From Candidatus Woesearchaeota archaeon (GTDB taxonomy: Archaea > Nanobdellota > Nanobdellia > Woesearchaeales > GW2011-AR4), in the NCBI GenBank assembly GCA_016185755.1, contig JACPMX010000014.1, forward strand, positions 53,868 to 117,867: a DNA stretch of 64,000 nt, given 5' to 3'. Position numbers and translations under genes: made by a program. The notes beneath the pieces are model-generated. The model was not told the origin of the DNA. It did not search any database and saw only the letters and a program-made list of their open reading frames with translations. How positions within the stretch are numbered: the stretch's first letter is position 1; each line of letters opens with the position of its first letter. Positions 45,897 through 46,077 of this stretch are shown here, in pieces.

Positions 45897-46077
45897 CTTA
45901 TTTTATAAGTATTAATTTCCTATTATATAAGAATAAATCCTATTAAATAAGTTAATATTCTTATTATATAAGATTTTTACCTATTATTTAAGTATAATCT
46001 TCTTATTATATAAGAATAATTCTTATTATATAAGAAAATATATCTTATTATATAAGTTATATAACTTATCATATAGG
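45897..46077. promoter_or_regulatory. Nine-unit CTTAT-N3-ATAAG-type array with 20-22 bp spacing (candidate operator array)
   Basis: Unit starts 45897, 45919, 45939, 45960, 45980, 46002, 46022, 46044, 46065 (spacings 22,20,21,20,22,20,22,21); two more related units at 45804 and 45820. Confidence 0.85.

What the first reader, a model, noticed from the sequence alone, without database searches (positions are those of the whole stretch)
45897..46077. Nine-unit palindromic array phased at two helical turns upstream of the HTH-giant operon
Seen: near-palindromes of form CTTAT-TAT-ATAAG start at 45897, 45919, 45939, 45960, 45980, 46002, 46022, 46044 and 46065, i.e. spacings of 20-22 bp with mean 21. 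Related units at 45804 (CCTATTATGTAAG) and 45820 (CTTATATATAAG) continue towards the gene. AT-richness alone does not explain a constant 21-bp period. The array sits in the 498-bp divergent region between hicBA (+) and the tandem-HTH/giant operon (-). Inference: a cooperative same-face operator that could coat with a protein filament, bound by the tandem-HTH protein 45131..45673. It could tune or switch a very costly surface protein.
Basis: partly seen in the sequence, partly recalled or inferred. Interest (0 to 1): 0.85.

Follow-up and report, generated by a model that had tools for sequence, protein, structure and literature searches.

The report
Self-regulation switch for archaeal surface proteins
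In a poorly known group of tiny archaea, a small DNA-binding protein made together with a huge cell-surface protein appears to control its own gene by docking side by side on a row of evenly spaced DNA sites, and comparison of related genes suggests which part of the protein reads which half of each site, a prediction that is easy to test.

Summary
In detail: nine 13-bp near-palindromes 20-22 bp apart. The array is much more than AT-richness. It recurs upstream of the orthologous tandem-HTH gene in 14 relatives from two genera; eight of them, and the window, keep the identical 21-22-20 bp spacing although spacers diverge. Its units are co-oriented. The window is a Woesearchaeota genome with one such gene.

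The HTH gene overlaps the surface-protein gene behind it. Across 97 family loci under 60% identical, gaps between units fall on multiples of 10.5 bp (R=0.48), so sites share one face of the helix.

The best evidence that the HTH protein is the binder is covariation: recognition-helix pairs KT, RT and RN go with half-sites NTCYTA, NACYTA and TACATA. HTH2 matches the TATA-proximal half, HTH1 the distal half, and natural domain swaps follow.

I read this as a cooperative autoregulator, probably a repressor, of surface-protein operons. Binding, polarity and cooperativity are untested. hicBA is a later insertion. No filament is shown. I found no description of this family in the open papers searched.

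The parts
45895..45911 (-). operator array unit 1 (17-bp form; 13-mer starts 45897)
45917..45933 (-). operator array unit 2 (13-mer starts 45919)
45937..45953 (-). operator array unit 3 (13-mer starts 45939)
45958..45974 (-). operator array unit 4 (13-mer starts 45960)
45978..45994 (-). operator array unit 5 (13-mer starts 45980)
46000..46016 (-). operator array unit 6 (13-mer starts 46002)
46020..46036 (-). operator array unit 7 (13-mer starts 46022)
46042..46058 (-). operator array unit 8 (13-mer starts 46044)
46063..46079 (-). operator array unit 9, promoter-distal end (13-mer starts 46065)
45802..45818 (-). promoter-proximal operator unit TACTTACATAATAGGAA, starting 13 bp downstream of the TATA octamer and covering the region expected just upstream of the start site
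   Evidence: TATA-to-unit distance of 12-14 bp recurs across the family
45824..45831 (-).
45832..45843 (-). A-rich BRE-like element (AAATTAGTAAAG) upstream of the TATA box
45131..45673 (-). tandem-HTH protein, 180 aa (HTH1 about residues 70-110 with K98-T99; HTH2 about 136-176 with R163-T164); proposed ligand of the array
20970..45134 (-). giant surface protein, 8054 aa, N-terminal signal anchor, 13 Laminin_G_3 stretches; its TTG overlaps the HTH stop by 4 nt (TTGA)
45709..45765 (-). 5'UTR hairpin, arms 45709-45719 and 45755-45765 (TTGTGTTGGGG/CCCCAACACAA), conserved in a subset of orthologs
46601..47539 (+). signal-peptide-peptidase-like membrane protease, conserved divergent neighbour of the array
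46172..46604 (+). hicBA pair, present in this genome only among 15 loci, so a later insertion between array and SPP gene

Best explanation
The array is the upstream part of the operator of an autoregulated operon that encodes a tandem-HTH regulator and, translationally coupled to it, a giant surface protein. One regulator molecule occupies each 17-bp unit, its second HTH on the TATA-proximal half-site and its first HTH on the distal half-site. Occupation of the unit between TATA box and start site would block promoter access. The nine phased upstream units load further regulators on the same face of the helix, making the response steep and concentration-dependent. Because regulator and surface protein are translated from one overlapping message, regulator level reports surface-protein synthesis and closes a homeostatic loop. 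Shown by comparison: array, phasing, promoter architecture, gene coupling, HTH/half-site covariation. Inferred: direct binding, one protein per unit, cooperativity, repression rather than activation.
For: Array upstream of the orthologous gene in 14 relatives; eight of them plus the window contain the identical 21-22-20 spacing, with unit columns 85% and spacer columns 58% identical. 109 of 111 units co-oriented. Family promoter TATA + 12-14 bp + unit. Gaps between units phase at 10.5 bp in 97 loci under 60% identical: n=130, R=0.48, best period 10.55; also for gaps over 25 bp in paralogs, R=0.86. HTH/half-site covariation in 66 loci: HTH1=KT with distal NTCYTA 19/20, HTH1=RT with distal NACYTA 23/27, HTH2=RN with proximal TACATA 11/11 at the diagnostic base. 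At under 55% identity the HTH1=RT/distal (p 3e-6) and HTH2=RT/proximal (p 8e-5) associations persist while the cross pairings do not (p 1.0, 0.18). Swaps L153, L155, L150, L156. HTH gene is usually followed, with overlap, by a membrane-anchored surface protein. The model resembles sigma region 4 HTHs.
Against: No binding, expression or start-site data. Only 67 of 139 family loci pass the operator threshold; the rest have diverged or unrecognised sites. Operator candidates were picked with a partly fixed pattern, although the positions tested were left free. Significance values treat loci as independent. At under 45% identity HTH1=KT with NTCYTA loses significance (2/2, p 0.11). Left halves of upstream units are relaxed (A or T at position 2), and one pair of paralogs has an inverted operator. 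At least one ortholog locus (L061) lacks a recognisable proximal unit.
Confidence: 0.7

Rival explanations
1. Same protein and same sites, but the upstream array activates or has a dual, concentration-dependent role: low occupancy upstream recruits the transcription machinery, high occupancy of the start-site unit represses.
For: Array lies upstream of BRE/TATA, where archaeal activators act; Ss-LrpB does both in a concentration-dependent manner (PMC4046817). Some paralogs keep the proximal unit with few or no upstream units.
Against: The most conserved site overlaps the expected start region, which favours repression.
Confidence: 0.25
2. The array is bound by another factor, for example a nucleoid protein, HicB or a general regulator, and the HTH protein is only a neighbour.
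For: No direct binding data. The array also sits next to the SPP gene and, here, hicBA.
Against: hicBA absent at all 14 other loci. Array pattern unique in the genome. Half-site covariation with HTH residues, domain by domain.
Confidence: 0.08
3. The array is structural: phased AT-rich elements give intrinsically curved DNA or a chromatin boundary, with no sequence-specific protein.
For: Phasing at about 10.5 bp; AT-rich elements so phased can bend DNA (general knowledge).
Against: Units conserved letter by letter while similarly AT-rich spacers drift; half-sites change in step with HTH residues; co-orientation.
Confidence: 0.04
4. Iterons of a replication origin, a centromere, or the remains of a mobile element.
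For: Direct repeats at two helical turns resemble iterons superficially.
Against: Related units occur at several loci per genome in relatives, each next to its own HTH paralog; conserved synteny with SPP and surface gene; fixed position relative to a TATA box.
Confidence: 0.02

Closest known systems
Ss-LrpB autoregulation in Sulfolobus solfataricus (Lrp/AsnC family)
   Same: An archaeal regulator binding several regularly spaced 15-bp palindromes in its own control region, cooperatively, with positive and negative autoregulation (PMC4046817).
   Different: There three sites each contacted by a dimer of an Lrp protein; here up to ten units, a different protein with two non-identical HTHs in one chain, half-sites that covary with different domains, and coupling to a surface protein.
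AraC/MarA-type or Pax/Myb-type proteins with two DNA-reading HTH units in one chain (from memory, not tested)
   Same: Two HTHs in one polypeptide contacting two successive half-sites.
   Different: Those sites are not pseudo-palindromic arrays phased over 270 bp. The HTHs here resemble sigma region 4 rather than AraC.
Sigma-70 region 4 / NarL-RcsB HTH fold
   Same: Best sequence and fold neighbours of each HTH.
   Different: All hits below curated cut-offs or at E > 0.1; no other sigma regions; an archaeal, not bacterial, transcription system.
BldC or ParB-type cooperative DNA-coating proteins (from memory, not tested)
   Same: Ordered occupation of repeated sites.
   Different: No filament or spreading is shown here.

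Membership tests
Lrp/AsnC autoregulators | AsnC-type HTH above the curated cut-off | tested here: not met
   PF13404 18 bits against cut-off 27
Lrp/AsnC autoregulators | C-terminal RAM ligand-binding domain | tested here: not met
   C-terminal half is a second HTH; no RAM match in the profile search, helices only in the model
Lrp/AsnC autoregulators | Several regularly spaced palindromic operators in own control region (Ss-LrpB type) | tested here: met
   (works like, not member of)
Sigma-70 factors | Region 4 plus region 2 of a sigma factor | tested here: not met
   Only weak region-4-like similarity, no other sigma region
HicAB operator | Array conserved together with hicBA | tested here: not met
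   hicBA absent at 14 of 15 loci with the array
Iteron replication origin | Repeats beside a replication initiator gene, one locus per replicon | tested here: not met
   Related units at several loci per genome in relatives, each beside an HTH paralog and usually a surface gene
Proposed family: tandem-HTH autoregulators of surface-protein operons | Two HTHs in one chain, overlapping surface-protein gene downstream, TATA + 12-14 bp + 17-bp pseudo-palindrome | tested here: met
   Window protein meets all three
Proposed family: tandem-HTH autoregulators of surface-protein operons | Direct binding of the protein to the units | not testable with these tools
   Needs footprint or EMSA

The most novel reading that the evidence does not exclude
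A widespread family of archaeal regulators with a simple two-domain, half-site recognition code forms mutually insulated feedback circuits, one for each giant surface-protein operon in a genome, and is physically tied to the cell surface: in some lineages the tandem HTH is fused behind a probable membrane segment of a surface protein, and the intramembrane protease encoded across the array may process the anchored protein or release the regulator, so that surface state reports directly to the array.
Probability: 0.15. Interest if true: 0.9.

Novelty: new variant of a known kind. Interest (0 to 1): 0.74.

Why it matters
As far as I know, almost no transcription regulator of the DPANN archaea has been characterised. 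This gives a family found in about half of sampled genomes of the phylum (61 of 121), a likely target for it, and an explicit residue-to-base prediction that two point mutants would test. It also offers a way to study how very small cells control very costly surface proteins, and a naturally evolved set of paralogous regulators with different site preferences.

Tried and rejected
Plain autocorrelation as proof (significant but weak). Array as part of hicBA. Iterons, centromere, CRISPR-like repeats (several loci per genome beside HTH genes, fixed promoter position). An exact three-unit pattern search over 295 genomes found the array almost only in this genus, because other lineages carry diverged units; this is why the family-wide analysis used a degenerate pattern. 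Of the exact ACTTACATARTARG places in 149 genomes, several are coding-sequence chance hits (L104, L111, L112, L115). Rfam: nothing credible in the 5'UTR. NCBIfam and PDB sequence searches gave no family. Open-literature searches found no description of the HTH family or array (most subscription papers and preprints are not covered). The operators of the class-D paralogs (HTH2 'NPAN') were not resolved. Activation or repression could not be decided from sequence.

Full report
WHAT WAS CHECKED. Nine matches within one mismatch were found against 0.01 expected in dinucleotide shuffles, and the array is unique in the 1.25-Mb genome. The consensus was drawn from the array, so the independent evidence is in the relatives. 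The genome's nearest named relatives are Candidatus Woesearchaeota.

CONSERVATION. The 180-aa protein has orthologs at 65-75% identity in most congeners, and reading their upstream DNA shows the same array each time, including in another genus whose locus is 55% GC. A unit model built from 15 loci finds 110 units where local shuffles give 1.2. Eight relatives and the window contain the identical 21-22-20 spacing run; in these, unit columns are 85% and spacer columns 58% identical. 109 of 111 units point the same way. The divergent neighbour is an SPP-type membrane protease at 14 of 15 loci, while hicBA is present only in the window genome, so it is a later insertion.

PROMOTER. Across much of the family the gene is preceded by an A-rich BRE-like stretch, a TATA box (TTTAWATA), 4-6 bp, and one unit. 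In the window the TATA box is 45824-45831 and the unit 45802-45818. From the usual archaeal distance between TATA box and start site (established knowledge), this unit should cover about -18 to -2. Distant paralogs may have only this unit, so it looks like the minimal operator and the array like an elaboration.

OPERON. The HTH gene is usually followed, with overlap of up to about 90 nt of open frame, by a gene for a large protein with an N-terminal signal anchor, often of the ITGFV type. In the window the two genes overlap by four bases (TTGA). The giant has 13 Laminin_G_3 stretches. One genome (G087) has the units directly before a surface gene with no HTH between.

HELICAL PHASE. Where gaps between units are not 21 bp they still tend to be multiples of 10.5 bp: 31, 42, 52-53, 63, 73-74. 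In 97 loci under 60% identical, with a class-neutral pattern, n=130 gaps, R=0.48, best period 10.55; with the strict pattern n=38, R=0.55, best period 10.5. In paralogs gaps over 25 bp give R=0.86. Rayleigh p-values (down to about 1e-13) assume independence and are indicative. This is direct support for sites on one face.

RECOGNITION CODE. Of 139 family genes, 67 have a scorable proximal operator and 66 have both HTHs readable. The two residues before [IV]W in each recognition helix go with half-sites: KT with NTCYTA (19/20 for HTH1 and distal half), RT with NACYTA (23/27), RN with TACATA (11/11 for HTH2 and the diagnostic base of the proximal half). Proteins with RT in both HTHs often have the full palindrome TACTTACATTGTAAGTA or close to it. 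In L153 and L155 the KT sits in HTH2, and the TTCTTA half moves to the proximal side; in L150 and L156 (HTH1 RN, HTH2 KT) the whole operator is inverted. After thinning to under 55% identity (38 loci) HTH1=RT/distal p=3e-6, HTH2=RT/proximal p=8e-5, cross pairings p=1.0 and 0.18; KT/distal weakens to p=0.03, and under 45% to p=0.11. Shared ancestry is not fully removed, but domain-specific pairing and swaps are hard to explain by ancestry alone. Operator candidates were chosen with the pattern TAC.TA.....TA.G., which leaves the main tested positions free; an earlier, motif-biased look gave the same picture.

PROTEIN. No Pfam, NCBIfam or PDB sequence family is reached. The AlphaFold model (mean pLDDT 84) has an N-terminal helical part and two HTHs; sigma region 4 and RcsB are the closest folds, none at a significant E-value. 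About half of sampled genomes of the phylum have the family, and congeners carry paralogs with different predicted half-sites.

HOW IT MOST LIKELY WORKS. A regulator made in step with the surface protein binds its own promoter. The start-site unit gives the direct effect, probably repression. The phased array raises the effective order of binding and sharpens the response. Binding, stoichiometry, cooperativity and polarity are inference. A filament is not excluded but nothing shows one.

COMPARISON. Functionally the nearest described case I found is Ss-LrpB (PMC4046817): regularly spaced sites with a 15-bp palindromic consensus in its own control region, cooperative, with activation and repression by concentration. 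The protein is not an Lrp (membership table). I therefore call this a new variant of a known kind, with a protein family I could not find described (the library holds only open papers and no preprints).

LIMITS. The named relatives are metagenome-assembled genomes, start codons and start sites are inferred, and the counts depend on score thresholds.

Noticed in passing
window 41304-41862 (+), inside the giant ORF 20970-45134 (-): A DUF433/DUF5615 toxin-antitoxin-like gene pair lies antisense within the giant gene (about residues 1090-1277), whose frame stays open through it. Relative L058 has a diverged copy (51% and 35% identical) also within its surface ORF; L060 and L061 alignments stop just before this stretch.
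   Followed up: partly
L207 (G340) and L206 (G332): The tandem HTH is fused to the C-terminus of a 1700-2400-aa open frame, in L207 behind a probable membrane segment, suggesting a membrane-tethered regulator.
   Followed up: partly
window 45709-45765 and orthologs: 5'UTR hairpin TTGTGTTGGGG/CCCCAACACAA and a short leader ORF of about 25-31 codons that runs into it, in a subset of orthologs with long leaders.
   Followed up: partly
window 46601-47539; L125: An SPP-like intramembrane protease gene is the conserved divergent neighbour of the array (14 of 15 loci), and also sits beside an HTH gene and a unit in another family. The giant has an N-terminal signal anchor, a plausible SPP substrate (inference).
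   Followed up: partly
L109/L212 (G087): Several operator units directly upstream of an ITGFAV surface-protein gene with no HTH gene between, suggesting control in trans.
   Followed up: partly
L114 (G105): Two exact units 21 bp apart plus a near unit upstream of an aminoacyl-tRNA-synthetase-like gene, a possible target outside surface operons.
   Followed up: no
L064, L065, L068, L069, L070: A second HTH paralog (class D, HTH2 'NPAN') about 2.5-3 kb downstream of the class-A HTH gene, with a different unresolved operator.
   Followed up: no
window 47563-48267: A MazE-like/PIN-domain pair, a further toxin-antitoxin-like module close to the locus.
   Followed up: no
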